Shown in pieces: positions 3,608-53,409 of a stretch of 64,000 nt of DNA. Below the pieces are notes generated by a model. It worked only from the letters and a program-made list of their open reading frames with translations. It searched no databases and had not been told where the DNA came from. Made by a program: the position numbers and the translations under genes. Numbering within the stretch: the stretch's first letter is position 1; each line of letters starts with the position of its first letter. The DNA comes from Acetobacterium woodii (lineage in GTDB: Bacteria > Bacillota > Clostridia > Eubacteriales > Eubacteriaceae), in the NCBI GenBank assembly GCA_016213825.1, contig JACQZP010000026.1, positions 310,001-374,000 on the forward strand, read 5' to 3'.

Positions 3608-4936
3608 ATGTTAAATTCAATTAATCAAGATGCGTTTACGCTGTTTAACCAGGGTGGAAATCTGATTCCTTATGAGTACACCGGGTATAAGAATGAAATT
3701 CTAGCATCAAAATCGACGGCCTGGTTTGGGACAACATTGAACAATTCCCCTATATACGATGTCAAAGGACCGGATGCGGCCAAATTCCTGACCTCCATCT
3801 GCATCAACAGCTTTTTAAAGATGAAACCAGGCAGCATCCGCCATGCCGTTCTCTGTAATGAACAAGGACTGATTCTGACAGATGGGGTAGTCATGATGAT
3901 TGCCGAAAATCACTTCCGAACCTACTGGCTTAACCCGGTGGTGGGATATTATGTATCGGTTACCGAGATGGATGTTGAAGGCGTTGATTTGTCGGGTAAA
4001 GAGTTCTTCTTCCAGCTGGCCGGACCAAAATCTCTGGAAATTTTGGAACAGGCTTCCCAAAGCGATCTCCACGATATTGCCTTTACCAAACACCGGATGG
4101 CAAAAATTGCAGGGGTCGATGTGCGCATTCTCAGACTGGGCATGGCCGGCACTCTAGGCTACGAAATTCATGGCGATGCGGAAAATTCAGAAGCTGTTTA
4201 TGACTGTATCTGGGAAATGGCCAAAACCTTTGATGCTAAAAAACTGGGACAGGTTGGTTATACCATGAACCATACCGAAGCCGGTTTCCCGAATATTAAT
4301 ATGCATTATCCATTGCCGTGGTTTGAAACGGAAGGCCTAAAAGAATATTTGGCCGCAAGACCAATGGAAGGCTTTTTCAATCTGAATAGAATCCTGGTTG
4401 GCAGCGTGGGCAATGATTTAACGACCCGTTTTGTCACCCCCTTTGATGTCGGCTGGGAATATCTGATTAAGTTTGATCATGACTTCCCGGGCAAGGCGGC
4501 ATTGGAAGAAATCGCCAAAAATCCGACCAGAACCATGGTGACCCTGGAATGGAATCCCGATGATCTGGGCGAAATCTTTGCTTCCCAGTTCAGAGGTCAG
4601 GACGTTGAACCCTTTGAAACCATGGACGACCGTCCCATGGATATGTATTACAACAGCGGTTTTTCCATGTATTACCACGCTGATAAAGTTTTAGCTGACG
4701 GCCATGAAATTGGTATTTCCAGCGGTCGTCTCAATAGTTATTTTTACCAGCGGATGATTTCGCTGGCCTTTATCAAGCCGGAATATGCCGTTGAAGGAAA
4801 AGAATTAACGGCTGTTTGGGGAACACCAGGAAAACCGCAAAAAGAAATCCGGGTAACGGTTGCCCGTTCGCCATATATGAATCTGGAAAACAATAAAGAG
4901 ATTGACGTGAACGAGATCCCCAGATATCAAAAATAG
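3608..4936 (+). CDS. GcvT/LigM-like THF-dependent demethylase (aminomethyltransferase family)
   Basis: 442 residues. The protein aligns by eye with the folate-binding GcvT superfamily, especially the longer LigM/DesA-like O-demethylases: an N-terminal segment with an aromatic-rich AWFGTTLNNSPIYDVKG stretch, an LTDGVVMMIAENHFR block, LRLGMAGTLGYEIHGDA, and a C-terminal barrel with ISSGRLNSYFYQRMISLAF. LigM and DesA move the methyl group of vanillate or syringate directly to THF without a corrinoid. Glycine-cleavage T proteins are shorter (about 365 residues), and no gcvH or gcvP lies nearby. It is divergent from a PucR-type regulator. A direct THF-dependent O- or N-demethylase is the likely role; the substrate is unknown. 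Confidence 0.75.
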   Translation: MLNSINQDAFTLFNQGGNLIPYEYTGYKNEILASKSTAWFGTTLNNSPIYDVKGPDAAKFLTSICINSFLKMKPGSIRHAVLCNEQGLILTDGVVMMIAENHFRTYWLNPVVGYYVSVTEMDVEGVDLSGKEFFFQLAGPKSLEILEQASQSDLHDIAFTKHRMAKIAGVDVRILRLGMAGTLGYEIHGDAENSEAVYDCIWEMAKTFDAKKLGQVGYTMNHTEAGFPNINMHYPLPWFETEGLKEYLAARPMEGFFNLNRILVGSVGNDLTTRFVTPFDVGWEYLIKFDHDFPGKAALEEIAKNPTRTMVTLEWNPDDLGEIFASQFRGQDVEPFETMDDRPMDMYYNSGFSMYYHADKVLADGHEIGISSGRLNSYFYQRMISLAFIKPEYAVEGKELTAVWGTPGKPQKEIRVTVARSPYMNLENNKEIDVNEIPRYQK

Positions 4937-8977: not shown

Positions 8978-9784
8978 ATGATCATCATTGGAGAAAAAAT
9001 AAACGGCGCCATTCCCGGGACTGCAAAAGCCATTGCCCAGCGGGATGCCGAGTTTATCCGGCACCTGGCCCAAATTCAGACTGCCGCCGGGGTTGACTAT
9101 ATTGATGTTTGCGCGTCGGTGGAGAACAACGTAGAGCTGGAGACCATGAAATGGCTCATTGATATTGTTCAGGAGGTAACAGAAACCCCCATTGCAGTGG
9201 ATAGCCCCAACGAACAGACATGTATTGCCGCGATGGCCTACTGCAATAAACCGGGACTTTTTAATTCGGTTTCTATGGAAGGGGATAAGGTTGATGTTGG
9301 CTTTGCAGCCATTGCCGACACTGACTGGGAATGTGTAGCGCTGCTGAACAGCGACAAGGGCATTCCTAAAACAGCCAAAGATCGTTTGGATGTTTTTGCC
9401 GATATTATGGCCAAAGCCAAAGAATACGGTATTGCCCCCTCCCGTTTACATATCGACCCATTAGTGGAAATGCTTTGCACCTCTGAAGAGGGGATCGTAA
9501 TGGTGACAGAAGTCATTCGGGAAATTAAAAATCAATACCCATCGATCCATGTCACTGGTGCTATCAGCAATATCTCATTTAATCTGCCGGCCCGAAAAAC
9601 GGTTAACATGGGTTTCACCGTGATGGCTATGATGGCCGGGCTGGACAGCGGGATTCTTGATCCGACTGACCGGGATTTGATGGGGATCATTTTTGCCACT
9701 GAGGCATTGATGGGGGAAGATGAATACTGTGTGGAATATATCCGGGCTTATCGTCAGGGGATTCACGGAGCGGTAAAAAAATAA
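8978..9784 (+). CDS. Methyl-THF:corrinoid methyltransferase (MT II), copy 1
   Basis: 268 residues of the pterin-binding TIM-barrel family that includes AcsE and MtvA. Residues Asp75 (VDSP), Asn96 (LFNS), Asp160 (HIDP) and Asn198 (ISNIS) match in position the pterin-contacting residues described for the Moorella AcsE methyltransferase. It would take the methyl group from the methylated corrinoid protein encoded next (9850) and pass it to THF. Length and lack of a second domain argue against dihydropteroate synthase or MetH. Copies 2 and 3 lie at 30408 and 45069. ATG start with TTAGGAG upstream. Confidence 0.88.
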   Translation: MIIIGEKINGAIPGTAKAIAQRDAEFIRHLAQIQTAAGVDYIDVCASVENNVELETMKWLIDIVQEVTETPIAVDSPNEQTCIAAMAYCNKPGLFNSVSMEGDKVDVGFAAIADTDWECVALLNSDKGIPKTAKDRLDVFADIMAKAKEYGIAPSRLHIDPLVEMLCTSEEGIVMVTEVIREIKNQYPSIHVTGAISNISFNLPARKTVNMGFTVMAMMAGLDSGILDPTDRDLMGIIFATEALMGEDEYCVEYIRAYRQGIHGAVKK

Positions 9785-9849: not shown

Positions 9850-10479
9850 ATGTCAAAAATTAATGAAGTCAAAGAATTGGTGGAAACAGGGAAGTCAAAG
9901 AAAGTCGGTGCCGCCGTCCAGGAAGCGATTGACGTAGGGAACAAGCCAGCGGATATCCTTCAGGCGATGGTAGATTCCATGAGCGTGGTTGGTGACAAAT
10001 TCTCTTCCGGAGAAATTTTTGTACCGGAAATGCTGATTGCGGCCAAGGCCATGTCCAAAGGGGTGGATGTACTAAGACCTTTAATGGCTGGTGACAACTC
10101 AGCTTCATTGGGAACCTGTGTCATCGGAACCGTGGCCGGGGATCTCCACGATATCGGCAAAAATCTGGTCTCGATGATGATTGAAAGTGCCGGGTTTACG
10201 ATGGTGGATCTGGGGGTGGATGTACCCGCTGAAAATTTCGTCAAAGCGGCCAAAGAAAATGACAATGTCACCTTAATCGCCTGTTCCGGACTGTTGACCA
10301 CCACCATGCCGGCGTTAAAAGAAGCGGTAGAAACCATCAAAGCCAGCGGATTGAGCGGCTGCAAAGTGATCGTCGGCGGGGCCCCGGTAACACCGGAATT
10401 TGCGGCCGAAATTGGGGCCGATGGCTATGCAGCCGATGCCGGGTCAGCGGCGGTTAAGGCCAAAGAACTGGTTAAGTAA
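9850..10479 (+). CDS. Corrinoid protein (CP) of methyltransferase locus A
   Basis: 209 residues. It has an N-terminal helical cap domain (residues about 1-85) followed by a B12-binding Rossmann domain with the DxHxxG signature: Asp98, His100 (lower axial cobalt ligand) and Gly103. The SGLLTTT and IVGGAPVT stretches of the MtaC/MtvC/MtmC family follow. It shuttles the methyl group between MT I (10548) and MT II (8978). A strong GGAGG site lies upstream. It is a close paralogue of the proteins at 31245 and 46111. Confidence 0.92.
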   Translation: MSKINEVKELVETGKSKKVGAAVQEAIDVGNKPADILQAMVDSMSVVGDKFSSGEIFVPEMLIAAKAMSKGVDVLRPLMAGDNSASLGTCVIGTVAGDLHDIGKNLVSMMIESAGFTMVDLGVDVPAENFVKAAKENDNVTLIACSGLLTTTMPALKEAVETIKASGLSGCKVIVGGAPVTPEFAAEIGADGYAADAGSAAVKAKELVK

Positions 10480-10547: not shown

Positions 10548-11522
10548 ATGAATCAGAGAGAGAATTTTTTTGCCATGATCGAGGGGAAGAAGCCCGAGTT
10601 TATACCGAATTCAATGGAAGTTTATAAATCCTGTATTGCAGGAACCTGTATAACCGATTCGCCGTTAATGGGTGGTGTGGACTCTTTTGGTGTTAATTGG
10701 GTTGCAACGAAGGAAGGCGCGATGCCTGAACCGAATAAGTTCTTGTTTGATGAGATTGCTGACTGGAAGGAACATGTTCATTTTGCAGATCTCGATAGTC
10801 TTGGCATTGAAGCCGCAGCGGCAAAGGAAATGGAAGACTTTAATCAGAACAATCGGAACGAACTGGTTGTTAATGTTTTTAGTGCCTGTGGTTTATTTGA
10901 ACGAATGGCTGCTTTTATGGGTTTTGAGAATGCCCTCTGTTCGTTGGTGGAAGATCCGGATTCCTGTCGAGAATTCTTTGAAGCCTTGGCTGATTATCGG
11001 ATTGCCTGTCACAACCGCTTTATTGACGCTTATCAGCCGGATGTACTGACCTATTTTGATGATCTGGCTACAGCTAATGGTCTCTTCATGTCGCCAAAAG
11101 TTTACCGTGAGGTGATTAAACCGTCACATCAACGGATTGTTGAGGCAGTGACCTCCAGAGGTGTGATCTTTTCCCAACATACCTGTGGGAAATGCGAAGA
11201 AATTGTCGGTGACTATGTCGAAATGGGAGCTAGAATCTGGCATTCTGCTCAGAGTATGAACGATCTTGAAGGAATCCAGGAAAAATACAATGATCGTTTG
11301 ATTATTGAAGGCGGTTGGGACTCTTCTGGCCCGGCCAGCTATATTGGCGCTTCAACAGAAGATTTAATTGAAGAGGCAAAACGGTGCGCCAACGTTTATG
11401 GGCAAAAAGGCAATTTTATTTTAATGCCGACTTTATTAAATGAAAACGGCAATTCATTGTTTGTGGGCGATCCCCGTCTTGAGCCCATGTTAAAAGCTTT
11501 CAATGAAATAAATAAGCTTTAA
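10548..11522 (+). CDS. UroD-fold methyltransferase A (MT I-type)
   Basis: 324 residues of the uroporphyrinogen decarboxylase-like superfamily that includes MtaA, CmuA and the O-demethylase MT I proteins. The segment LTYFDDLATA (FDD at 170-172) replaces the HDD seen in copies B, C and D. A HTCGKC motif (His211, Cys213, Cys216) is a probable zinc site. Heme synthesis is unlikely because no other hem gene is near and an MT II-CP pair is immediately upstream. It shares these features with MT I E at 51470, and both are followed within 20 bases by a 68-69-residue membrane protein. The methyl donor is unknown. Confidence 0.82.
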   Translation: MNQRENFFAMIEGKKPEFIPNSMEVYKSCIAGTCITDSPLMGGVDSFGVNWVATKEGAMPEPNKFLFDEIADWKEHVHFADLDSLGIEAAAAKEMEDFNQNNRNELVVNVFSACGLFERMAAFMGFENALCSLVEDPDSCREFFEALADYRIACHNRFIDAYQPDVLTYFDDLATANGLFMSPKVYREVIKPSHQRIVEAVTSRGVIFSQHTCGKCEEIVGDYVEMGARIWHSAQSMNDLEGIQEKYNDRLIIEGGWDSSGPASYIGASTEDLIEEAKRCANVYGQKGNFILMPTLLNENGNSLFVGDPRLEPMLKAFNEINKL

Positions 11523-11539
11523 GAAAACGAGTTAAAGGC

Positions 11540-11746
11540 ATGAAAGCAGCAGTAATGACCGGATTAATCGGCGGAATTATGGGGCTATTGATTAGTTTTA
11601 TGCTCAACTACTTTTTAATACCCATGCCGGACTCTATTTTTGCCAATGCCTTTGGCAATGGCATCAGCGGACTAATGAGCGGTTTTATGGGCGGTTTTAT
11701 CGGTTTACTGATGTATTTAAAAAAAAACGTTGTCAAAGAAAAATAA
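11540..11746 (+). CDS. Small two-helix membrane protein paired with a UroD-type methyltransferase
   Basis: 68 residues starting 17 bases after the methyltransferase stop. Two predicted membrane helices (residues about 5-28 and 38-59) are rich in glycine. The second contains GNGISGLMSGFMGGFIGLL, nearly identical in the paralogue at 52496, and a basic tail follows. Over the first 59 positions about two thirds of residues are identical between the two copies. I do not recognise a named family. The repeated pairing with the same subclass of methyltransferase suggests a membrane anchor, a small channel subunit or a transport partner for the methylated substrate. Confidence 0.8.
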   Translation: MKAAVMTGLIGGIMGLLISFMLNYFLIPMPDSIFANAFGNGISGLMSGFMGGFIGLLMYLKKNVVKEK

Positions 11747-12021: not shown

Positions 12022-13329
12022 ATGGATAATCAACCAGCCAACCTCCAACCCAATCAAAAACGCATCAGCGATCTGGTGGACATCAAAACCCTCCAGGAAA
12101 TTCTCGACGCCTTTACCACCACCACCGGTCTGATGGCCAATATTGTGGATGTGGAGGGGGTCTCGATTTTCCCACGCAAGGGCATTAAAAAATGCTGTAA
12201 ATTCTGTCGGATTATTTACAGTCTGGAAGGCGGCAAGAACCGCTGTCAGGCCGCCTACAAACGGGCTGGCAAACAGGCGGCGCTGTTTGGCGAGCCCTAT
12301 ATTTTTCGCTGTCCCTCGGGGTTGATTGAGTGGGCGGCGCCGATTGTCTTAAACGGTGAACATGTCGGTACCATCATCTGCGGACAGGTGCTGATGTGGG
12401 AGCCGGAGGAGTTTTTCTGGATTGAATTACGAAAAATGAATCAGGCGATCACCGATGATTTTGAAGAATTGTTTGCAGCGGTGGGGGAGCTGGCCATTGT
12501 TACCGGCAACCAGGTCCAGGCCTCGGCCTATCTGCTGTATGTGGTGGCCAACTATATTATGAAAGCCGGCTGGGAAAATTTTGAGCAGTCCCGGGAGTTT
12601 GCCCGCCAGCGAACCCTTTATCATGCGGAAATTGAAAACCGGAAAAGTTTGGAAGAACAATTGGACAAAACTGAAATCCTGTCGCTGATTGATGAAGACG
12701 AAATCATCGTGCAGCTTCAGCAAAACCGCAAAAAAGCAAAACTATATCTGGAGGGTCTGATTTCCGGGCTGCGTTATGAAGCTCACCAGAATTTGCCGCA
12801 GATGCGGGCCAAAATGATCGAGCTGCTAGTGATGTTATCCCGGGTTGTTAACCGGTTGGGGCAGGCGGTGGCGCCGTTTCTGCAAATCAACGATCAGGCA
12901 TGGAGTCAGATTTATCAAACCGATTCCATCGAGAATATCGGTGTGCTGACTTCCAAGGCAGTGGATGCCTATCTGGAGCACCTTGAGGCATTAGCGATCA
13001 AACCAGAAAATCCCAACATTAAATTGATGATTGATTTTGTTGAAAGCAACTATCAGAAAAATCTGACGGTAGAAGAGATTTCTGATTCAGCTTGTCTCAG
13101 TCCCGGCTATGCCGGCCGGATTTTCAAAGACCAGCAGGGCATGTCGATCATGGATTATGTCCTGAAGGTACGGATCGAAAAATCCAAGAAACTGCTGCTC
13201 AATCCTCATTATCAGATTCAGACCATTGCCGAAAGCGTGGGTTATGGAGATGCCGGCTATTTTACTAAGGTGTTCCGTAAATTTGAAGGAATCACCCCTA
13301 CGCAATTTAGAAAAGTTCATAAACGATAA
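12022..13329 (+). CDS. PocR-domain AraC-family transcriptional regulator
   Basis: 435 residues. The N-terminal third (residues about 15-180) is a PocR sensory domain with a cysteine cluster (CCKFC, a later Cys in KNRCQ and another in FRCPSG) and the ILNGEHVGTIICGQVL-like core. A helical linker follows, then a C-terminal AraC DNA-binding domain with two helix-turn-helices (residues about 335-435, including VEEISDSACLSPGYAGRIFK). PocR domains sense small ligands, and some bind corrinoid- or diol-pathway compounds. An AGGTGA site supports the ATG at 12022, and a TATACT -10-like hexamer lies at 11980-11985. A corrinoid protein gene starts 10 bases downstream, so the two are almost certainly cotranscribed. 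Confidence 0.88.
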   Translation: MDNQPANLQPNQKRISDLVDIKTLQEILDAFTTTTGLMANIVDVEGVSIFPRKGIKKCCKFCRIIYSLEGGKNRCQAAYKRAGKQAALFGEPYIFRCPSGLIEWAAPIVLNGEHVGTIICGQVLMWEPEEFFWIELRKMNQAITDDFEELFAAVGELAIVTGNQVQASAYLLYVVANYIMKAGWENFEQSREFARQRTLYHAEIENRKSLEEQLDKTEILSLIDEDEIIVQLQQNRKKAKLYLEGLISGLRYEAHQNLPQMRAKMIELLVMLSRVVNRLGQAVAPFLQINDQAWSQIYQTDSIENIGVLTSKAVDAYLEHLEALAIKPENPNIKLMIDFVESNYQKNLTVEEISDSACLSPGYAGRIFKDQQGMSIMDYVLKVRIEKSKKLLLNPHYQIQTIAESVGYGDAGYFTKVFRKFEGITPTQFRKVHKR

Positions 13330-13339
13330 GGTGCACAAT

Positions 13340-13999
13340 ATGGAAAAAGTTTTAATCGAATTACAGCAAGCCATTGAAAACGGGGAAACCCAGATTGCCA
13401 TGAATAAAACCAAGGAAGCCCTGAATTATGGCATCCGCACCGATAAGATTATCCAGACCGCCGTCAACCCGGCCTTTAAAGATCTGGGCCAGAAGATGTT
13501 TGATGGGGAAATCTATGTCACCGATGTGCTGATGGCCTCCCGGGCGGCTCATGCGGCGATGTACGTGATGGAGCCGATTCTGTCCCGTTCAACCGGCACC
13601 TCAAAAGGCATCGTGGCTATCGGTACGGTGGCCGGGGATCTTCATGATATCGGTAAAAACCTCGTGATCATGATGCTTCAGGGCAGCGGTTACACAGTGA
13701 TTGATCTGGGCATTGATGTACCGGCGGAAACCTTTATCGAAGCAGTCCGGATGCACAAGCCCCATGTACTGGCGCTGTCATCCCTGCTCACCACCACTCT
13801 GCCGGAGCTGGACAGTATGATGGAGGCTCTGGTGGAACAGGGTCTGCGCACTCAGGTCAAAGTCATTGTCGGTGGTGCCCCAGTGACGGCTGAATATGCC
13901 GGCCGGATCAAAGCCGATGCCTATGCCAACGACTTGTTTGAAGCGACGGAAGCGGTGGGGGATCTGATGAAGAATCGGATTGGGAAGTATACCGTTTAA
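13340..13999 (+). CDS. Corrinoid protein cotranscribed with the PocR regulator
   Basis: 219 residues from the ATG at 13340, 10 bases after the regulator's stop; a longer reading frame from 13226 would run deep into the upstream gene and is rejected. It has the same two-domain layout as the other CPs: helical cap, then DLHDIGKN with Asp100, His102 and Gly105, then SSLLTTTLPEL and IVGGAPVT. It is more divergent than the three locus CPs and has no adjacent MT I or MT II. It may serve a methyltransferase encoded elsewhere, or have a sensory role with the PocR regulator. A terminator follows. Confidence 0.88.
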   Translation: MEKVLIELQQAIENGETQIAMNKTKEALNYGIRTDKIIQTAVNPAFKDLGQKMFDGEIYVTDVLMASRAAHAAMYVMEPILSRSTGTSKGIVAIGTVAGDLHDIGKNLVIMMLQGSGYTVIDLGIDVPAETFIEAVRMHKPHVLALSSLLTTTLPELDSMMEALVEQGLRTQVKVIVGGAPVTAEYAGRIKADAYANDLFEATEAVGDLMKNRIGKYTV

Positions 14000-45068: not shown

Positions 45069-45866
45069 TTGATTATTATTGGAGAAAAAATTAACGGCGC
45101 GATTTCCTCAACCGCCAAAGCCATTGCGGACAAGGATGCCGAATTTATCAAAAACCTGGCGATTAAACAGGCTGAAGCCGGCGCGGATTTCATTGATGTC
45201 TGTGCATCTGTGGATGACGACATTGAACTGGAAACCATGAAATGGCTGATTGACATTGTTCAGGAAGCGGTGGATACGCCGATAGCGGTGGACAGCCCCA
45301 ATGTATACACCTGCATTGAGTCCATGAAATACTGCAACAAACCAGGACTTTTCAACTCCGTGTCGTTAGAAGGCGACAAGGTTGACGTGGCTTTTAAAGC
45401 CATCGCCGGCAGCAAATGGGAATGTGTGGCACTGTTGAACAGCGATAAGGGCATTCCTAAAACCGCCAAAGATCGGCTGGACGTCTTTGCCGATCTGATG
45501 GTAAAAGTGAAAGAATACAATATCGACCCATCCCGGATGCATATTGATCCCCTAATCGAAATGCTTTGTACTTCGGAAGATGGCATCACTATGGTCACTG
45601 AAGTCATTCGTGGCATTAAAGCCCAATACCCCACCATCCATGTCACCGGTGCGGTCAGTAACATTTCCTTCAACCTGCCGGCCCGTCGGATTGCCAACCA
45701 GGCCTTTGCCGTCCTGGCCATGAGCGCCGGTATGGACAGCTTCATCCTCGATCCCCTGAATAAGGATATGATGGGCATGTTGTTTGCCACCGAAGCGATG
45801 ATGGGCGAAGACGAATATTGTATGGAATACATCAGTGCTTTCCGTGAAGGTATTTTCGTAAAATAA
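45069..45866 (+). CDS. Methyl-THF:corrinoid methyltransferase (MT II), copy 3
   Basis: 265 residues with a TTG start after AGGAGG. The pterin-site residues are conserved as in the other copies (Asp75, Asn96, Asp160, Asn198). It is nearly the same protein as copy 2 at 30408, including the C-terminal GMLFATEAMMGEDEYCMEYI, so the MT II-CP pair has been duplicated. It probably serves both MT I C and MT I D. A palindromic element separates it from its CP. Confidence 0.9.
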   Translation: MIIIGEKINGAISSTAKAIADKDAEFIKNLAIKQAEAGADFIDVCASVDDDIELETMKWLIDIVQEAVDTPIAVDSPNVYTCIESMKYCNKPGLFNSVSLEGDKVDVAFKAIAGSKWECVALLNSDKGIPKTAKDRLDVFADLMVKVKEYNIDPSRMHIDPLIEMLCTSEDGITMVTEVIRGIKAQYPTIHVTGAVSNISFNLPARRIANQAFAVLAMSAGMDSFILDPLNKDMMGMLFATEAMMGEDEYCMEYISAFREGIFVK

Positions 45867-45886
45867 ACTGCCGTTAGCTTCGCTGC

Positions 45887-45973
45887 CGGTTTATGCCAAA
45901 CAATTTCTCCACTGTACGTCGTACAGGCTACCGCCTGTTCGCCTACTCGTTACGAAATAGTTTGCATAAACCG
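45887..45973. repeat. Folded palindromic repeat element between MT II and CP
   Basis: Outer arms CGGTTTATGC (45887-45896) and GCATAAACCG (45964-45973) are perfect complements. Inside are CTGTACGTCGTACAG and ACAGG-CTACCG-CCTGT stems. The higher GC content and the absence of such an element at the other two MT II-CP junctions suggest an inserted REP- or MITE-like sequence, or an mRNA-processing element. Confidence 0.65.
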
Positions 45974-46110
45974 ACATCAAAGCAATTCTTGTTCGATTTC
46001 TATAATCGATTAATACGTTACAACAAAACCCGGGGCTCAGACAGGCTGCGCGTGACTGAAATAAAAGAAAGCACATTAAATATATATCAAAAATCAAAGG
46101 AGAAAAAAAC

Positions 46111-46740
46111 ATGTCAAAAATTGAAGAAGTAAAAGTTCTAGTCGAAACTGGTAAATCAAAAAAAGTAGCTGCCGCGGTTCAGGAAGCACTGGATGCCGGC
46201 GATAAAGCTCAGGATATTCTGGATGCGATGATCGCATCAATGGGTGTGGTTGGCGATAAATTCTCATCCGGCGAAATCTTTGTTCCGGAAATGCTGATTG
46301 CCGCCAAAGCCATGTCAAAAGGTGTCGAAGTTTTAAAACCAGTGATGGCTGGCGACGGTTCCAGCTCACTGGGAACCTGTATCATGGGCACCATAGCCGG
46401 TGATCTCCACGATATCGGTAAAAACCTGGTGGTGATGATGCTGGAAAGCGCCGGCTTTGATATGGTCGATTTAGGTGTTGACGTCCCCGCAGAACGCTTT
46501 GTAGAAGCCGCTAAAGAAAACAACAATGTCGTCCTGGTGGCCTGTTCCGGTCTGTTGACCACTACCATGCCAGCCTTAAAAGAAGCCGTTCAAACTGTTA
46601 AAGCAGCACTGCCAGACATGAAAGTCATTGTCGGTGGCGCACCGGTTACTCAGGAATACGCCGACGAAATCGGTGCTGACGGTTATGCTCCAGACGCCGG
46701 CAGCTCGGCCTCAAAAGCCAAAGTAATCATCGGCGCTTAA
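46111..46740 (+). CDS. Corrinoid protein (CP) of locus D
   Basis: 209 residues. Cap domain, then AGDLHDIGKN with Asp98, His100 and Gly103, SGLLTTTMPAL and IVGGAPVTQEY. The N-terminus is almost identical to the CP at 31245. An AAAGGAG site lies upstream. It carries the methyl group from MT I C or D to MT II copy 3. Its spacing from MT II (244 bases) is unusually wide because of the palindromic element. Confidence 0.92.
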   Translation: MSKIEEVKVLVETGKSKKVAAAVQEALDAGDKAQDILDAMIASMGVVGDKFSSGEIFVPEMLIAAKAMSKGVEVLKPVMAGDGSSSLGTCIMGTIAGDLHDIGKNLVVMMLESAGFDMVDLGVDVPAERFVEAAKENNNVVLVACSGLLTTTMPALKEAVQTVKAALPDMKVIVGGAPVTQEYADEIGADGYAPDAGSSASKAKVIIGA

Positions 46741-46839: not shown

Positions 46840-48225
46840 ATGAAAAAACCTTTAAGTAAAGCGTTAAAGCGATTTTATGGTATCGGAGATTTTGGATTTA
46901 CCCTGATGGCGAATGTCGAACTGTATTATATGGCATATTTCTTAACGAATATCGCTAAATTTGACTTAGCCACGACTGCTCTTATTATGACATTTACGAG
47001 TATGGTCGATGTAATATTATCGCCATTCTACGGTGGCATAATCGATGGCATGAAACCAATGAAGTGGGGTCGCTACCGATCATGGCTGTTATTGATGCCG
47101 CCAATTGTAACTCTGTTCTATACGCTGGAATTTACAACAATTGGCTCAGGAATGGTGCCGATAGTCATTATTATTGGAGCCTACCTGGTAGCACATATAT
47201 TCTGGAATTTTTCCTATGTTGCAAATGTAGCTCTGATCCCAACCATTTCCAGTACACCGGAAGACCGAGCTCAGTTATCTGCTACCCGTGGTGCCTATAA
47301 CAATGCCGGTAAACTTGCTTTCTCAGCAGTTGGTCTGGCGACGGTTTTATATATTGGCACCGCCATTGGCAATCCAGTTCTAGGATTTACCCTGGTTGCA
47401 TTGGCTATGGCACTGGTATATTGGGTCACTTATTTTGCCCACTTTAAAATGACAGATGGTTATGAAGAAACCCATCAAGAAGCCAGTCAAAACACCAAAA
47501 AGAAAGAAAAAACATCCATTAAACAAATGACAAAATCACTGGTACAGAACCCTCATTTATTGGTTCTGTTGCTTGCCGATCTAACACGATGGATCGTAAA
47601 CTTTGTTATGGCAGGCTCAGCTGCTTATTTCTTCACTTATGTTACAAATAATGTGGCGATGTTCTCAATCTATCTGCTAGTCGCCAATGGGATGGCACTG
47701 ATTGGATCATATCTGAGTAAATACGCCGCCAGCAAATTTACAACGCGAACAGCTGGTATTTTCGGATTTTATGCATTGGGAGTATTCCTGTTAGTCAGTC
47801 AGTTTTTTGTGAATGATATCATGGTTGTACTGGTCTTCCTTTCCTGTGCGCAGTTCTTCTTAGGTTTTATCTATGCTTTAATTTCAGCCATGTACAGTGA
47901 TGCTGTTATCTACAGTGAGTGGAAAACAGGTTCAAAAGCTTCGGGCTGGATTATGGGATTAATGAATCTGCCATTAAAAATTGCTAATTTAATCAAAGGT
48001 GCGATTATTCCTGCGGTTCTGGCAGCGGTTGGCTTTGTGGCAAAAATGGATCCGGCGACCGCGACTCCTGAATTGAAAGCCGGGATTGTGCAATTGTTTG
48101 TGATTATTCCAGGGATTGGTATCCTGATTGGAGCAGTGCTGCTGACTGTTGGCTATCGCTTGACCCGGGATAAAATTACAACTTATCAAAATCAAATTGA
48201 TGAAAGACAGGCGATTGCTGAATAA
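46840..48225 (+). CDS. GPH-family symporter, locus D
   Basis: 461 residues, about 12 membrane helices. LKRFYGIGDFGFTLMANVEL and GGIIDGMKPMKWGRYRSWLL are the GPH/MelB signature segments, matching the locus B transporter in length and gene position (directly after an MT II-CP pair). An AAGGAGAAG site precedes the ATG. It probably imports a methylated substrate of MT I C or D using a cation gradient. Cargo is not predictable from sequence; classical GPH members carry sugars and glycosides. Confidence 0.85.
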   Translation: MKKPLSKALKRFYGIGDFGFTLMANVELYYMAYFLTNIAKFDLATTALIMTFTSMVDVILSPFYGGIIDGMKPMKWGRYRSWLLLMPPIVTLFYTLEFTTIGSGMVPIVIIIGAYLVAHIFWNFSYVANVALIPTISSTPEDRAQLSATRGAYNNAGKLAFSAVGLATVLYIGTAIGNPVLGFTLVALAMALVYWVTYFAHFKMTDGYEETHQEASQNTKKKEKTSIKQMTKSLVQNPHLLVLLLADLTRWIVNFVMAGSAAYFFTYVTNNVAMFSIYLLVANGMALIGSYLSKYAASKFTTRTAGIFGFYALGVFLLVSQFFVNDIMVVLVFLSCAQFFLGFIYALISAMYSDAVIYSEWKTGSKASGWIMGLMNLPLKIANLIKGAIIPAVLAAVGFVAKMDPATATPELKAGIVQLFVIIPGIGILIGAVLLTVGYRLTRDKITTYQNQIDERQAIAE

Positions 48226-48260
48226 TAATTGAAGTTGATTGAATTCAAATAATTGCTTAA

Positions 48261-48304
48261 CAATAAGAAGCCTTTTTCAAATAAATTTGATAGGCTTCTT
48301 ATTG
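48261..48304. terminator. Hairpin between two transporter genes
   Basis: Perfect 12-bp arms CAATAAGAAGCC (48261-48272) and GGCTTCTTATTG (48293-48304). Only a short AT-rich tail follows, so it may be a partial terminator. Confidence 0.65.
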
Positions 48305-48384
48305 ATTTAAGGTGTTATTGCCGAGATTATTTAAATAAACATAGAAGTTTTATGGAAATACAAAATTTAGAAGGAGACGTTTCA

Positions 48385-49731
48385 ATGAAGAATTTTAGTA
48401 TATCCGAAGTAATGGATTCCCTGGGTGTTAACACGTTTACCTGGAAAATATTTTTCCTGCTGGGTCTGGCGATGGTGTTTGACGGCTATGATTATATGAT
48501 TGTATCGTACACGATGCCTCAGATCGCAGCGGAATGGGGATTGAGCGCCGTCGCCAAAGGCAGTTTATCATCCTGGAGTTTAATTGGCTTGATCCTGGGC
48601 GGGGCACTGGCCGGGATTATCTCAGATAAAATCGGCCGCCGAAAAACCCTGATGTTTGCGATTGGGATGTATTCGCTGATGAATATTCCGATTTATTTTT
48701 CCAGCAGCTTCGAAATGTTTGCGCTGTTTCGGGTGTTGGCAGGGATTGGTTTGGGTGCCTGTATTCCGGTAGTCACGACAACTTACTCGGAATCGACCCC
48801 AACCAACAAACGGGCGATTTTTATTACCTTTGGGATGGCCTGGATGATTGTTGGTTGGGTGCTGGCGGGTCTCGTGGCTACCGCTGTTGTGCCAGTCTTT
48901 GGCTGGCGCCTGTGTTACTTGATTGGTGGGATTCCGTTGGTCTATGCGATTTTCCTGTACTTTAAAATGCCAGAATCAGCCTACTGGCTGGCCAACAAGG
49001 GCTACCGGGAAAAAGCGGTCAAAGCTCTGCAAAATATCGAACGGATCGCCACCGGTAAAATGACTGATTGGGATCCGGCCGCTTTAATCGTTCCGCCGAA
49101 ACCGAAACAGGCCGGTCCCCGAGCGCTGTTCTCTAAACCATATATTCGCATTACTGCGGCAATTTGGATTATGTATTTCTGCGGCTGTTTTATTGTCTAT
49201 GGTATTAATGCCTGGCTGCCGTCGTTGATGCTGGAAAAAGGGTTAACCCTGACATCAGCTTACGGACTGGCCATCGCCCAGAATGCAGCGGCGATAATCG
49301 CCAATTGTTCAACCGGCTTTGTGGCTGAAGCCGTCGGCCGGAAAAAGAATCTGATCTTATCCTTTGGGGTGGCGGCCATTTCGGTAGTCATCATGGCCAC
49401 TGTCGGCGGCGGTTTTGGGGCGATTCTGGCGGCCTGTATTTTCCTGGGCTTTGCAGTAAACTACTCAATCACTGCCATCCAGCCGCTGATGGCCGAAGCT
49501 TATCCTACTGAGTTCCGAAATACCGGAGTATCCTGGTGTCATGCCTTTGGTCGGATTGGCGGCGCCAGCGCCCCGATTATTGCCGGCATCATTATTGGCA
49601 TGGGGCAAGGCTATGCGGTGTCTTTTATGTTTTATGTGATTCCGGCCGTGATCGGTTTATCAGCAGCAGCGTTTTTGGTTAAAACAGAAACCAAGGGAAA
49701 ATCCCTGGATGAGTTGGCGGAAGTAATTTGA
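48385..49731 (+). CDS. MFS transporter of the aromatic acid:H+ symporter type
   Basis: 448 residues from the ATG at 48385, which follows AAGGAGACG; a frame from 48253 would run through the upstream hairpin. Twelve helices. DGYDYMIVSYTMPQI in helix 1 (the D-G-Y-D signature of aromatic acid symporters), the DKIGRRKTL loop and PESAYWLANKGY are typical of the AAHS/sugar-porter-like branch that imports benzoate, 4-hydroxybenzoate or related acids. In this locus it is a likely importer of methoxylated aromatic acids. It is followed by a bidirectional terminator shared with the convergent PucR gene. Confidence 0.85.
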   Translation: MKNFSISEVMDSLGVNTFTWKIFFLLGLAMVFDGYDYMIVSYTMPQIAAEWGLSAVAKGSLSSWSLIGLILGGALAGIISDKIGRRKTLMFAIGMYSLMNIPIYFSSSFEMFALFRVLAGIGLGACIPVVTTTYSESTPTNKRAIFITFGMAWMIVGWVLAGLVATAVVPVFGWRLCYLIGGIPLVYAIFLYFKMPESAYWLANKGYREKAVKALQNIERIATGKMTDWDPAALIVPPKPKQAGPRALFSKPYIRITAAIWIMYFCGCFIVYGINAWLPSLMLEKGLTLTSAYGLAIAQNAAAIIANCSTGFVAEAVGRKKNLILSFGVAAISVVIMATVGGGFGAILAACIFLGFAVNYSITAIQPLMAEAYPTEFRNTGVSWCHAFGRIGGASAPIIAGIIIGMGQGYAVSFMFYVIPAVIGLSAAAFLVKTETKGKSLDELAEVI

Positions 49732-49805: not shown

Positions 49806-51335
49806 TTAATTTAACCCAAAATCGATTAATTTAAAGGTCAGACTGATATGAAAAAGATCATCGTCATTTTTTAAATCGGTTTCGCCGATTTCTTTGATCC
49901 GCTCTAGCCGATAAACAATCGTAGCCCGATGAATAAACAGGTCTTTGGCGGTTTGCACCGCATTCATGTTGTTCCGCATGTAGGATTGGAGAGTTTTGAC
50001 ATAATCGGTCTGATTCTTCACATCATAACGCTGCAGCCGCAAGATAATCGGGGAATAAAGAGATGGAGCTGGCAACTCGGCAGTCATTGTATTAAAAATA
50101 TAGGGCATCACCGCATCGCAAAACTTATGGGTCCATTTTTGGGGCTGATAGTGGGTGCCCATCTCCAGGGCAATTTCCGCTTCACGAAAACATATCTTCA
50201 GATGACTTAAGCCGTCGGCATAATGACTGTAGCCGATGCGGAAATTACCGTCTTTAATCAAGCGATTGATCCGTCTAAAGTAACTGTCCCGGGATTCCTG
50301 AATATGGGAGATATTGAACAAAACAAAAATACTCTGATTGTTGGAAAAGGCAAAGCTCTCTTTAAAATCCTGCATGATCACATTGCAAAAATAAGTGGTG
50401 GTTGCGTTATAAATATCCTGGCTGCTGGGCTTGATATGGGCAGCACAATAGATATGATCGGGACGCCAGTCCAAATGGTTCAGTTCGGCGGTCAGGTTGG
50501 TTTGGCTAAAGCTATTCCCGAGGATAATTGATTGCAACAGCGCTGCCAGCTGCGAGTTTTTATCCTGATGAAAGGCCGCTAAATAGCTGGAATCACGCAG
50601 TAGATGCTGGGACAGGTGCTCCAACAGGGCGGCATCACTTTCGCCAAAGGGATGATCTGTTTCTGAGATAATCAAGCGAAAGACAAAGGCATGATTCAGA
50701 AAAATATTTTTGCATAGCGTTTGAAAGGGCAACAGTTGGGCTGGATAAAGAAAAACGTCCCGCTCGTTCTTTATTTCATTATATTTGGGGTCGTTTTTAA
50801 ATAAGTTGACCTGCTCGACCGAGATTCGGCCAGCTTCGCCCAATTGCAGTTGCTCCTGATCCATCAGCGCATCCAGACCGGTATGGGCAATCATATAATA
50901 ATCAGCATTCATAATCGACAATCCGTTTTCAAAGATCGGATAAGAAAGCTCCAATAAGTGTTGTAGGGAGCGTTTATCACGGATCGATTGCTGGAAGCTG
51001 AGATCCCAGGTTTCATAAATCGTAAAAATCTGATGAATAGTATTGCTTAATTCAAAAATATCGGCGGTATCGTCGATAATCAGCAGTTCTAGCGCATCAT
51101 TGATGTAACGATCCGGGGGATTGCCAATGCAGATCAGGGCTGAACCGGCTTGGCAGCTGGCGTTTGGATTGAGTCTATCGGCGGAAGCTATATATAATGT
51201 GTCGGAACACAGCTCAGTTTCCCCGGCATAAAAAACCGGCCGATCCAGATGCGGCAAAGAACTCGATACATGAGTCTTGTTATCTTTTACAGCATGTCGC
51301 AGTTTTACTTGAATAAGAGCGATGGATAATTTCAT
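49806..51335 (-). CDS. PucR/CdaR-type transcriptional regulator, third copy
   Basis: 509 residues from the ATG at 51333-51335 (GAGGTA upstream; a start 51 bases earlier lacks a site). C-terminal helix-turn-helix AKDLFIHRATIVYRLERIKE is of PucR type; the central CdaR-like and N-terminal sensor regions follow the pattern of the copies at 1928 and 27657. It is divergent from MT I E (51470), 135 bases away. A dyad TATACA-TAG-TGTATA at 51351-51365 sits just upstream of its start. Likely controls MT I E and possibly the aromatic acid transporter. Confidence 0.85.
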   Translation of the reverse strand: MKLSIALIQVKLRHAVKDNKTHVSSSLPHLDRPVFYAGETELCSDTLYIASADRLNPNASCQAGSALICIGNPPDRYINDALELLIIDDTADIFELSNTIHQIFTIYETWDLSFQQSIRDKRSLQHLLELSYPIFENGLSIMNADYYMIAHTGLDALMDQEQLQLGEAGRISVEQVNLFKNDPKYNEIKNERDVFLYPAQLLPFQTLCKNIFLNHAFVFRLIISETDHPFGESDAALLEHLSQHLLRDSSYLAAFHQDKNSQLAALLQSIILGNSFSQTNLTAELNHLDWRPDHIYCAAHIKPSSQDIYNATTTYFCNVIMQDFKESFAFSNNQSIFVLFNISHIQESRDSYFRRINRLIKDGNFRIGYSHYADGLSHLKICFREAEIALEMGTHYQPQKWTHKFCDAVMPYIFNTMTAELPAPSLYSPIILRLQRYDVKNQTDYVKTLQSYMRNNMNAVQTAKDLFIHRATIVYRLERIKEIGETDLKNDDDLFHISLTFKLIDFGLN

Positions 51336-51350
51336 ATGATTGTACCTCTT

Positions 51351-51365
51351 TATACATAGTGTATA
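51351..51365. promoter_or_regulatory. Candidate operator between the third PucR gene and MT I E
   Basis: TATACATAGTGTATA is a perfect 6-bp inverted repeat with a 3-base centre, 15 bases upstream of the regulator's start codon. Binding by the adjacent PucR protein is plausible. Confidence 0.4.
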
Positions 51366-51469
51366 GATGTCAATCACAAAAGTCAATCAGCTTGTATAAT
51401 TTACGTTTTCGTAAAAATAACTTAAAATTAAATTATTAAATGATTAATAAAACGAGGAGGAAGAATAAG

Positions 51470-52483
51470 ATGGGATTAACACCGAAAGAGAATTATCTGA
51501 ACGCAATCAATCATCAGGCAATTGAATGGACCCCGGTCCACATTGTCGACTGTGGCGTTTTGGGTTTTGGCGCCCTGCCGGGACCCTGGTTTGAAAAAGG
51601 CCCTCTGGGTGGCGGTTACGATGGCTTTGGCATTCGCTGGATCACTCCAGCTTCCGGCGGCGGCGCCCCGATACCGGCCCCCAATGAACACATTATGGAT
51701 GCCGATACCATCGTTGACTGGAAAAAAATAGTCAAATTTCCAGATCTGGAAGCTGTTGACTGGCAGGCCATGGTGGCGACTGAACTGGCAATGATGCCGG
51801 TTGACAGAAATATCCAAGCAGTTGAATTTGGCTGTGGCAATGGTGTATTTGAACGGCTGGCCGCCTTGATGGGTTTTGAAGAAGCCCTGATTGCCTTGGC
51901 TGAAGAACCGGAGGCCTGTAATGAATTAATGACAGCCATTACCGACTATAAAATTGAGTTTGCCAAAAAAGTCAAACAATATTACAACCCGGATCTGTTT
52001 ACCAATTACGATGACATTGCCACCGAAAGAGGGCTGTTTATGTCCCCGGCATCCTATCGTAAACTGATCAAACCACATCACAAACGGCTTAACGATGCCG
52101 TCAAAGAACTGGGTATGATCCCTGTCCAGCACACCTGCGGTTATTGCGAACCGCTCATCGAAGACATCATCGAAACAGGTGCGGCGGTGTGGACCTCGGT
52201 GCAACCTACCAATGATATTGCCGGGATGCAAAAAAAATACGGCGATAAAATCGTTTTGATGGGTGGTTTTGATACTAACGGCGCTGCCGGATTAGCAGAT
52301 GCAACCATGGAGACACGACTGGCCGAAGTGCATCGCTGCTTTGATGAATATGGCCAGCAGCCCGGCTTTATTTTCTTTGGCTTTGTTCTGGTAAACAGCC
52401 TGGATCCGGCTGAGGTTGGCGCCCAGTTGGGACCGATTCTGCAGGAAGCAGCTCGCTACAGTCATCAATTGGCAGCGAAATAG
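51470..52483 (+). CDS. UroD-fold methyltransferase E (MT I-type)
   Basis: 337 residues from the ATG at 51470, after GAGGAGGAA. UroD-like barrel with TNYDDIATE (Tyr180-Asp-Asp182) and QHTCGYC (His221, Cys223, Cys226), the same variants as methyltransferase A at 10548 and unlike B, C and D. The second cysteine two residues after HTCG suggests a different zinc site. It has no adjacent MT II or CP, and is followed 12 bases later by the small two-helix membrane protein. It may use one of the CPs encoded elsewhere in the window. Methyl donor unknown. Confidence 0.83.
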   Translation: MGLTPKENYLNAINHQAIEWTPVHIVDCGVLGFGALPGPWFEKGPLGGGYDGFGIRWITPASGGGAPIPAPNEHIMDADTIVDWKKIVKFPDLEAVDWQAMVATELAMMPVDRNIQAVEFGCGNGVFERLAALMGFEEALIALAEEPEACNELMTAITDYKIEFAKKVKQYYNPDLFTNYDDIATERGLFMSPASYRKLIKPHHKRLNDAVKELGMIPVQHTCGYCEPLIEDIIETGAAVWTSVQPTNDIAGMQKKYGDKIVLMGGFDTNGAAGLADATMETRLAEVHRCFDEYGQQPGFIFFGFVLVNSLDPAEVGAQLGPILQEAARYSHQLAAK

Positions 52484-52495
52484 GAGCTGCTGATA

Positions 52496-52705
52496 ATGAA
52501 AAGTGCAATTACAGCAGGTTTGTTCGGTGGGATTATTGGCTTTAGCATCAGCTTTGCCATAAATTATTTTCTGATCGCCATCCCGGAAACCAGCCTTGCC
52601 AATGCTATGGGAAATGGTATCAGCGGCTTGTTAAGTGGTTTTATGGGCGGGTTCATCGGTTTGCTGATTTATATCAGACAATCCACTGAATTTAAACAGA
52701 AATAA
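52496..52705 (+). CDS. Small two-helix membrane protein, second copy
   Basis: 69 residues, starting 12 bases after MT I E, with a TAGGAGC site formed at that gene's stop codon. Two glycine-rich helices; the second contains GNGISGLLSGFMGGFIGLLI, and a charged tail follows. It is a clear paralogue of the protein at 11540, which also follows a methyltransferase of the YDD/FDD-HTCGxC subclass. The strong conservation of the second helix compared with the free tail indicates a constrained role for that helix. No known family recognised. Confidence 0.8.
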   Translation: MKSAITAGLFGGIIGFSISFAINYFLIAIPETSLANAMGNGISGLLSGFMGGFIGLLIYIRQSTEFKQK

Positions 52706-52854: not shown

Positions 52855-53409
52855 ATGACAAAAATCGGCATAATATTAGGAAGCACCCGACCGGGACGAA
52901 ATGGCGAAGCAGTGGCAAAATGGGTTAATGAACTGGCACAGAAACGTAGTGATGCGAACTATGAGTTAATCGATGTGGCAGATTATCATTTGCCTCTTTA
53001 CGACGAACCGTTTCCGGCAATGATGCAGAAGTATACCAAAGAACATACAAAGATATGGTCCCAGAAAATAAAGCAATTTGATGGATTTATATTTGTTACC
53101 GCCGAGTACAACCATAGTATTCCCGGGGCCTTAAAAAATGCCATCGACTTTTTGAATGTTGAGTGGCAGAATAAAGCTGCCGGATTTGTGAGTTACGGCA
53201 GCGCCGGGGGAACCCGGGCGGTTGAACATCTCAGACATGTCGCCGGTGAACTCCATATGGCCGATGTACGGGCCCAAGTGATGCTTTCGCTCTTCACTGA
53301 TTTTGAAAATAACATCTTTAAGCCAAACCCACGTCACGAAGGGACACTAAACGATGTTTTTGATCAAGTGATTGCTTGGAGTAATGCGTTAAAAACATTG
53401 CGAGATTAG
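52855..53409 (+). CDS. NADPH-dependent FMN reductase-like flavoprotein
   Basis: 184 residues from the ATG at 52855, preceded by AGGAGGATC. Flavodoxin-like fold with IGIILGSTRPGRNGEAVAKW (the FMN phosphate-binding loop) and FVTAEYNHSIPGALKNAIDF, the signature of the SsuE/azoreductase (YhdA) group. It would reduce free FMN or quinones with NAD(P)H. Apparently a single-gene unit followed by a hairpin. Confidence 0.88.
   Translation: MTKIGIILGSTRPGRNGEAVAKWVNELAQKRSDANYELIDVADYHLPLYDEPFPAMMQKYTKEHTKIWSQKIKQFDGFIFVTAEYNHSIPGALKNAIDFLNVEWQNKAAGFVSYGSAGGTRAVEHLRHVAGELHMADVRAQVMLSLFTDFENNIFKPNPRHEGTLNDVFDQVIAWSNALKTLRD

What the first reader, a model, noticed from the sequence alone, without database searches (positions are those of the whole stretch)
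10548..11746. A UroD-type methyltransferase subclass paired with a 68-residue two-helix membrane protein (locus A copy)
Methyltransferase A carries FDD and HTCGKC in place of the HDD and HSCG of other copies, and a 68-residue protein starts 17 bases after it. The same pair, with the same variant motifs, recurs 40 kb away (51470-52705). The small protein is about two thirds identical between copies, mostly in a helix containing GNGISGL and SGFMGGFIGLL. This looks like an undescribed membrane-linked corrinoid methyltransferase module.
Basis: partly seen in the sequence, partly recalled or inferred. Interest (0 to 1): 0.75.

Follow-up and report, generated by a model that had tools for sequence, protein, structure and literature searches.

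The report
Portable membrane protein beside aromatic-modifying enzymes
A tiny unnamed two-helix membrane protein follows a methyltransferase gene twice in this probable acetogen, but its relatives elsewhere follow other enzymes, some of which act on plant phenolics, so it looks like a movable helper rather than a fixed part of the methyltransferase.

Summary
Both pairs exist, 17 and 12 bases apart, and the small protein is a real gene under purifying selection. But copy B carries YDD/HTCGYC, not FDD/HTCGKC, and the methyltransferases are only 37% identical against 61% for the small proteins. The enzymes are UroD-type corrinoid methyltransferases, a known kind.

HTCGxC does not predict the pairing: 11 of 30 such genes in the genus carry the small gene (9 of 12 in clade A, 2 of 7 in clade B, 0 of 11 others). 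In the genus 13 of 20 small genes follow a UroD-type gene; the rest follow corrinoid proteins, a LigM-like O-demethylase or a chemotaxis gene, or are undetermined. Outside the genus, 0 of 7 places directly follow a corrinoid methyltransferase; they include a GH1 glucosidase beside a GH106 rhamnosidase, and a chalcone isomerase.

It passes no Pfam, NCBIfam or PHROG threshold used. My reading: an unnamed, sparse, horizontally moving two-helix membrane protein, an optional accessory of operons that remodel aromatic, often plant-derived, compounds, perhaps easing their membrane passage. The mechanism is inferred. One forward test failed: 0 of 4 other chalcone isomerase loci carry it.

The parts
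10548..11522 (+). MT A: UroD-type corrinoid methyltransferase (MTI kind), clade A, YFDD / QHTCGKCE
   Evidence: PF01208 E 9e-17; below the cut-off of every NCBIfam model listed, nearest MtaA/CmuA models; model nearest to M. mazei methylcobalamin:CoM methyltransferase 4ay8/4ay7 and UroD
11540..11746 (+). Small two-helix membrane protein A, 68 aa, 17 bases after MT A
   Evidence: purifying selection; helices 2-24, 31-67; no K/R in loop
51470..52483 (+). MT B: UroD-type corrinoid methyltransferase, clade B, NYDD / QHTCGYCE (ORF open from 51440)
   Evidence: PF01208 E 1e-16; 37% identical to MT A; separate clade in the tree
52496..52705 (+). Small two-helix membrane protein B, 69 aa, 12 bases after MT B
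8978..9784 (+). Methyltetrahydrofolate:corrinoid methyltransferase (MTII kind), locus A
   Evidence: NF005719, 332 bits over cut-off 259
9850..10479 (+). Corrinoid protein of locus A
   Evidence: PF02310, PF02607; nearest MtgC model, below its cut-off
12022..13329 (+). PocR-domain AraC-type regulator next to locus A
   Evidence: PF10114 E 5e-47, HTH_18
13307..13999 (+). Second corrinoid protein near locus A (start chosen by me; ORF open from 13226)
   Evidence: PF02310, PF02607
11891..11922 (+). Terminator-like hairpin after small gene A, consistent with the small gene ending the operon
   Evidence: 12-pair stem; but the count in the region, 8, is no more than the shuffled mean of 7.6, sd 3.4
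49806..51386 (-). PucR-type regulator, divergent from MT B
   Evidence: PF13556 E 1e-16
52870..53409 (+). NADPH-dependent FMN reductase family protein after small gene B (start chosen by me; ORF open from 52768)
   Evidence: PF03358 E 4e-42

Best explanation
Shown: MT A and MT B are UroD-type proteins; MT A's operon holds corrinoid-pathway genes. The small protein is a conserved protein with two hydrophobic helices. It belongs to an unnamed, sparsely spread family that recurs downstream of unrelated enzymes, in three bacterial phyla, and that also occurs as decayed relics. Inferred from positive-inside charges: both ends lie in the cytoplasm, and the loop (P-x-P-E-T-x-x-A-N) lies outside. Inferred from invariant or nearly invariant small residues (G8, G11, G15, S19; G44, S47, G48): the helices pack tightly and may form an oligomer. 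Inferred from neighbours: it is not a methyltransferase subunit but a portable, optional accessory of operons that remodel aromatic, often plant-derived, compounds by demethylation, deglycosylation or flavonoid ring chemistry. Most likely mechanism: it eases passage of the hydrophobic substrate or product across the membrane, alone or with the operon's transporter. My rough odds: a real portable family, 0.9; the aromatic or phenolic theme, 0.5; permeation as the mechanism, 0.25.
For: Genus: 20 matches in 12 of 67 genomes of the order, all in one genus. The gene upstream on the same strand is an HTCGxCE UroD in 11, another UroD-type gene in 2, a corrinoid protein in 3, a LigM-like protein in 2, a chemotaxis-type protein in 1 and undetermined in 1. 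The LigM-like protein matches vanillate/3-O-methylgallate O-demethylase 5x1i/5tl4 at E 1.6e-36, an O-demethylase of another fold. Caulobacter hibisci: the small gene starts 4 bases after a GH1 glucosidase and is followed by a GH106 alpha-L-rhamnosidase, E 7e-302. Acetoanaerobium noterae: it starts 27 bases after a chalcone isomerase (4d06, E 1e-95); the locus also has an FMN_red protein whose relatives lie beside 3 of 4 other chalcone isomerase genes and within 1.5 kb of the fourth. The pairing arose at least twice or was often lost: MT clades A and B are separate, and in clade B only the L071/L083 subclade has it. Small protein B groups with L034 (after an MT B) and with L032 (beside a chemotaxis gene). 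No K/R in the loop in 15 of 15.
Against: A forward test failed: of 4 further chalcone isomerase loci (in 4 of 336 genomes), 0 of 4 carry the small gene within about 1.5 kb (best profile match there E 0.02, 7.6 bits, taken as chance). The Caulobacter GH1 has relatives in 34 plasmid records, but the Caulobacter small protein has no match among plasmids at E 0.01. So it is optional at best. Several contexts do not fit the theme: two Streptomyces anthocyanicus plasmids (unknown proteins next door), a chemotaxis-type gene (L032) and a relic beside an azoreductase-like ORF (L050; both names by inspection). The GH1-side relic in G398 is only 19 residues, E 1.7e-4. The theme was seen after the fact, on few independent contexts. 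The LigM-like gene is 161 bases away and the second UroD type 194 bases away. No tested fact speaks for permeation. The substrate of MT A and MT B is unknown; a UroD-superfamily methyltransferase of A. dehalogenans takes chloromethane and not methoxylated aromatics (PMC13222342, abstract).
Confidence: 0.35

Rival explanations
1. Membrane tether: the small protein anchors the methyltransferase or corrinoid protein at the membrane, perhaps near a transporter, and was recruited for this in this genus.
For: Within the genus 13 of 20 copies follow a UroD-type gene, 3 more follow a corrinoid protein, and 9 of 12 clade A methyltransferases have it.
Against: Elsewhere it follows a GH1 glucosidase and a chalcone isomerase. 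19 of 30 HTCGxCE genes do without it. It has no domain beyond a short variable tail after helix 2. Partner enzymes differ far more (37%) than the small proteins (61%).
Confidence: 0.15
2. Small-protein regulator of a multi-helix transporter: it binds and tunes a permease that brings the operon's substrate in.
For: MFS-type transporters lie near locus B (46840-48225 PF13347; 48253-49731 PF07690) and next to the LigM-like gene in L030 (PF07690). Small bacterial membrane proteins of this size often do this (recalled).
Against: No transporter gene lies directly beside it in the Caulobacter stretch read (6500-9500 of L025) or the Acetoanaerobium locus, where a 215-aa hydrophobic ORF of unknown kind starts 3.4 kb downstream. 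At locus A the nearest transporter-like ORF, by inspection, starts at 15390, 3.6 kb away.
Confidence: 0.22
3. Hitch-hiker without a functional tie to the upstream gene: a small, easily mobilised membrane gene (for example a stress or toxin-like peptide) that survives where it lands behind expressed catabolic genes.
For: Very sparse spread (5 of 391 genomes in the class sample, 3 of them in the genus; 2 of 398 in the phylum sample, 1 of them the window's own), truncated or decayed copies in G037, G317, G398 and G636, and a copy with no telling neighbour on Streptomyces plasmids.
Against: Strong purifying selection and spacing of 4 to 31 bases after the upstream stop at several loci; 9 of 12 clade A methyltransferases keep it.
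Confidence: 0.2

Closest known systems
UroD-superfamily corrinoid methyltransferases (MTI: CdmB, MtvB, OdmB, VdmB, MtoB; also MtaA/CmuA)
   Same: UROD domain and fold, DD and HxCG residues, and at locus A a corrinoid protein and a methyltetrahydrofolate methyltransferase; model nearest to M. mazei 4ay8/4ay7. The CdmB paper (PMC13222342; abstract, sections 6, 8, 9, 29 and passages read) reports 26 putative methyltransferase systems in A. dehalogenans and MTI clades of unknown substrate.
   Different: Below the cut-off of every NCBIfam model listed; no characterised MTI was placed among the 36 rows of my tree; substrate unknown.
LigM (tetrahydrofolate-dependent aromatic O-demethylase, GcvT fold)
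   Same: A LigM-like gene precedes the small gene in L029 and L030; aryl O-demethylation is also the reaction of several UroD-superfamily MTIs (PMC13222342, section 9)
   Different: Another fold (GcvT, not UroD); linked here only by a small gene of the same family downstream
Pfam DUF4257 (PF14074)
   Same: Weak match of helix 1 only, 20.3 bits at best
   Different: Below the cut-off of 27 bits; covers 26 of 81 positions; no PF14074 match in G000
Flavonoid-degradation loci (chalcone isomerase, FMN_red protein, phloretin-hydrolase-like protein)
   Same: The Acetoanaerobium copy sits in such a locus, right after the isomerase
   Different: The other 4 chalcone isomerase loci examined lack it

Membership tests
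UroD-type corrinoid methyltransferase (MTI) | URO-D domain and fold | tested here: met
   PF01208 for both; Foldseek of the MT A model to 4ay8 and UroD structures, best E 8e-11
UroD-type corrinoid methyltransferase (MTI) | Operon partners: corrinoid protein and methyl-H4F methyltransferase | tested here: met
   8978-9784 and 9850-10479 at locus A. At locus B similar-looking genes lie at 45069-46740 (by inspection), not adjacent to MT B
UroD-type corrinoid methyltransferase (MTI) | Methyl transfer from a defined donor to Co(I) | not testable with these tools
   Needs purified proteins
Named MtaA/CmuA/MtbA subfamilies (NCBIfam) | Score over the curated cut-off | tested here: not met
   42.7 bits at best against cut-offs of 235 and more for MT A; 57.2 against 244 for MT B
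Fixed 'HTCG methyltransferase + small protein' module | HTCGxC enzymes carry the small gene | tested here: not met
   11 of 30 in the genus
Fixed 'HTCG methyltransferase + small protein' module | Small protein occurs only with such enzymes | tested here: not met
   11 of 20 in the genus; 0 of 7 places outside it
DUF4257 (PF14074) | Score over cut-off along the whole domain | tested here: not met
   17.2, 20.3 and 16 bits against 27, helix 1 only; no match listed for the other 4 of 7 small proteins scanned
Any PHROG or NCBIfam family | Significant match of the small protein | tested here: not met
   best E 0.0083 over 4 proteins in PHROGs; best E 0.019 over 2 proteins in NCBIfam
Accessory of aromatic/phenolic operons (proposed here) | Other loci of the same pathway carry it | tested here: not met
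   0 of 4 further chalcone isomerase loci
Accessory of aromatic/phenolic operons (proposed here) | Neighbours over a wide homologue census are enriched in such enzymes | tested here: inconclusive
   Suggestive contexts, few and seen after the fact; no census across phyla was possible

The most novel reading that the evidence does not exclude
The small protein is the founding example of a new kind of minimal, two-helix oligomeric permeation protein for plant phenolics (methoxylated aromatics, flavonoids and their glycosides), passed between bacterial phyla as a single tiny gene that plugs in behind whichever phenolic-processing enzyme is present.
Probability: 0.13. Interest if true: 0.78.

Novelty: new variant of a known kind. 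Interest (0 to 1): 0.45.

Why it matters
How anaerobes take up or get rid of hydrophobic plant phenolics is poorly known (recalled), and small membrane proteins are easily missed by annotation. A tiny, unnamed membrane gene that recurs behind a UroD-type methyltransferase, a LigM-like O-demethylase, a chalcone isomerase and a glucosidase is a concrete, cheaply testable handle on that question. The enzymes alone would be ordinary additional members of a known superfamily.

Tried and rejected
HTCG motif as the marker of the pairing: rejected, 11 of 30. The same DNA pattern over 382 genomes of the class gave 12 sites: 6 in the genus and 6 in other genera (the reversed control pattern gave 4). Of those 6, 5 lie in no ORF that reads HTCGxCE and 1 in a 116-aa ORF with weak similarity to MT B, so they look like chance and add nothing; the small-protein profile matched none of those 6 genomes. 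DUF4257 relationship: rejected. FtsX, Tim17, DUF2798, BioY and other weak Pfam matches: below cut-off, differing from relative to relative. Solved-structure relatives of the small protein: best E 0.048, an anion exchanger, treated as chance. Solved-structure relatives of MT A or MT B by single sequence: none at E 0.001; by profile A5, only 4ay7 at E 4e-4. Phage origin: no match in the phage records; none of 79 pattern hits in viral contigs was a relative. RNA family in the window: none at the gathering threshold. Matches dropped before counting: G000 L003 and L004 (E about 0.5 and 0.7); G927 (E 7e-4, in a 389-aa frame); G962 and G947 (E 1.5e-4 and 8e-4, in 577- and 485-aa frames). These were judged chance matches to parts of larger proteins and not followed up. 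A fold search of the small protein was not run, as a two-helix model tells little.

Not resolved: the tree of the small proteins (19 rows) is mostly unresolved, 2 of 16 inner branches starred. Whether MT A/B are aryl O-demethylases could not be tested. The single genome-contig scan used two narrow peptide patterns and gave 3 loci, 2 of them from one genus member, so the family's spread is under-counted.

Full report
What is there. At 10548-11522 an ORF of 324 aa with YFDDLATANG and QHTCGKCE is followed after 17 bases by a 68-aa ORF, 11540-11746. At 51470-52483 (open from 51440) an ORF with NYDDIATERG and QHTCGYCE is followed after 12 bases by a 69-aa ORF, 52496-52705. The small proteins are 61% identical, the methyltransferases 37%. 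The DD pair and H-x-C-G are invariant in all five UroD-type sequences of alignment A5, including the HSCG copies, so the motif difference is slight.

The enzyme. Both are URO-D family proteins, far below the cut-offs of the named MtaA/CmuA/MtbA models. A model of MT A (mean pLDDT 72.5, pTM 0.79, 5 sequences) is nearest to the M. mazei methylcobalamin:CoM methyltransferase and to UroD. With the neighbouring methyltetrahydrofolate:corrinoid methyltransferase and corrinoid protein at locus A, this is the known MTI-CP-MTII type of system. The chloromethane paper (PMC13222342; outline with abstract, found passages, sections 6, 8, 9 and 29 seen) says A. dehalogenans has 26 putative methyltransferase systems and colours some UroD-superfamily MTI clades as of unknown substrate. 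MT A and MT B therefore look like further members of a known kind. The window's substrate is not known.

The small protein is real. Among the pairs printed, dN/dS is 0.06 to 0.30 where dS can be estimated, with synonymous sites otherwise saturated. Fifteen aligned sequences keep G8, G11, G15, S19, P30, G44, L45, S47 and F49 invariant, two hydrophobic stretches, no K or R in the connecting loop, and K/R at both ends. This suggests both ends inside and a tightly packed helical hairpin. AlphaFold2 gives helices 2-24 and 31-67 (mean pLDDT 72.8, only 4 sequences).

How often does an HTCGxC methyltransferase carry it? A DNA pattern for HTCGxCE finds 30 sites in 13 of 19 genomes of the genus; the reversed control pattern finds none. 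All 30 lie in ORFs of 225 to 388 aa (one cut by a contig end), which group in one tree, and 11 of 30 have the small gene downstream: 9 of 12 in clade A (QHTCGKCE), 2 of 7 in clade B (QHTCGYCE), 0 of 3 with PIQHTCGLCE and 0 of 8 with PFIHTCG(K/C)CE. In the window's own genome it is 2 of 5. The tree puts clades A and B apart, and in clade B only one pair of sister sequences has the small gene, so the pairing arose at least twice, or was lost often. Over 382 genomes of the class the same pattern gave 6 sites outside the genus, which look like chance.

Where else is the small protein? In the order it matches 12 of 67 genomes, all one genus, 20 matches. I take the genus to be Acetobacterium: G037 has the length I recall for A. 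woodii, and G025 has two contig lengths of MAG HGW-Firmicutes-4; this is inference. The gene upstream on the same strand is an HTCGxCE UroD in 11, another UroD-type gene in 2 (L020/L033, with HCCGKC and a small gene lacking helix 1; L012/L026, 194 bases away), a corrinoid protein in 3 (L027, L028, L031; by resemblance), a GcvT-domain protein in 2 (L029, L030), a chemotaxis-type protein in 1 (L032, by inspection) and unknown in 1 (L021, cut by the contig end; its downstream gene order resembles locus B). The GcvT-domain protein of L029 matches the aryl O-demethylase LigM at E 1.6e-36 and ends 161 bases before the small gene; that of L030 was recognised by its like sequence and place, not searched.

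Outside the genus I found 7 places. Caulobacter hibisci: 4 bases after a GH1 glucosidase, and before a GH106 alpha-L-rhamnosidase. Acetoanaerobium noterae: 27 bases after a chalcone isomerase that matches 4d06 at E 1e-95, in a stretch that also has a beta-keto acid cleavage enzyme, an FMN_red protein and a protein just under the DAPG-hydrolase cut-off (PF18089, 22.1 bits against 22.7) that is 77% identical to the neighbour of another chalcone isomerase (L101). Two Streptomyces anthocyanicus plasmids, with the same protein accession: no telling neighbour. Relics: G398, 19 residues after a GH1 that is 51% identical to the Caulobacter one; G317, a C-terminal half after a flavoprotein-like ORF (by inspection), with a UroD gene nearby on the opposite strand; G636, with stops, beside an azoreductase-like ORF (by inspection). 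None of the 7 directly follows a corrinoid methyltransferase.

Reading. Two O-demethylase families of different fold (if MT A and B are O-demethylases, which is untested), a chalcone isomerase, and glucosidase/rhamnosidase genes suggest a common theme: aromatic, often plant-derived compounds. The family is sparse (5 of 391 genomes of the class sample, 3 of them in the genus; 2 of 398 of the phylum sample, one of them the window's own), decays, and is found in three phyla. I propose an optional accessory membrane protein, most likely easing passage of hydrophobic substrates or products, alone or through a transporter. The mechanism is inference.

Results against it. If it were a regular part of flavonoid loci, other chalcone isomerase genes should carry it; 4 of 336 genomes had one and 0 of 4 had the small gene within about 1.5 kb. 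The Caulobacter GH1 has relatives in 34 plasmid records, yet the Caulobacter small protein matches no plasmid at E 0.01. The Streptomyces, chemotaxis and azoreductase contexts do not fit. Contexts are few and were read after the fact.

Novelty. The small protein reaches no cut-off in Pfam (7 family members scanned, 2 and 5; best 20.3 bits against 27), none in NCBIfam (2 scanned), nothing below E 0.001 in PHROGs (4 scanned), and nothing convincing among solved structures. Six paper searches on corrinoid, O-demethylase, LigM, flavonoid and small-membrane-protein terms listed no paper whose title or shown start of abstract describes it; beyond these listings I saw only PMC13222342 as said above and passages of PMC8361940 and PMC11170127. 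This does not prove that it is absent from print.

Noticed in passing
window 3608-4936 (+): A GcvT-domain protein (PF01571), 46% identical to the LigM-like protein of L029; a possible second O-demethylase type in the window, without the small gene directly after it (next long ORF is a GGDEF protein).
   Followed up: partly
L053 677-5907: Acetoanaerobium noterae locus with chalcone isomerase, FMN_red protein, BKACE and a phloretin-hydrolase-like protein just under its Pfam cut-off: a probable flavonoid-degradation locus, with no annotated feature in the stretch of the record used.
   Followed up: partly
L099 677-1451: In G354 two hydrophobic ORFs (89 and 170 aa) lie just upstream of a chalcone isomerase; no match to the small-protein profile.
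   Followed up: no
L047 242-1557 and L025 6677-8210: GH1 glucosidases 51% identical between a genome of the window's class and Caulobacter, both followed by the small gene (a 19-residue relic in the former): possible cross-phylum transfer of the pair.
   Followed up: partly
window 46840-48225 and 48253-49731 (+): Two MFS-type transporters (PF13347 and PF07690) between corrinoid-type genes and locus B; candidates for the substrate's transporter.
   Followed up: no
L051 6318-12189 (-): On a Streptomyces anthocyanicus plasmid the small gene stands next to a very large hypothetical protein gene (record 370333-379476); the second plasmid has a large neighbour under a different protein accession, while the small protein's accession is the same in both.
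   Followed up: no
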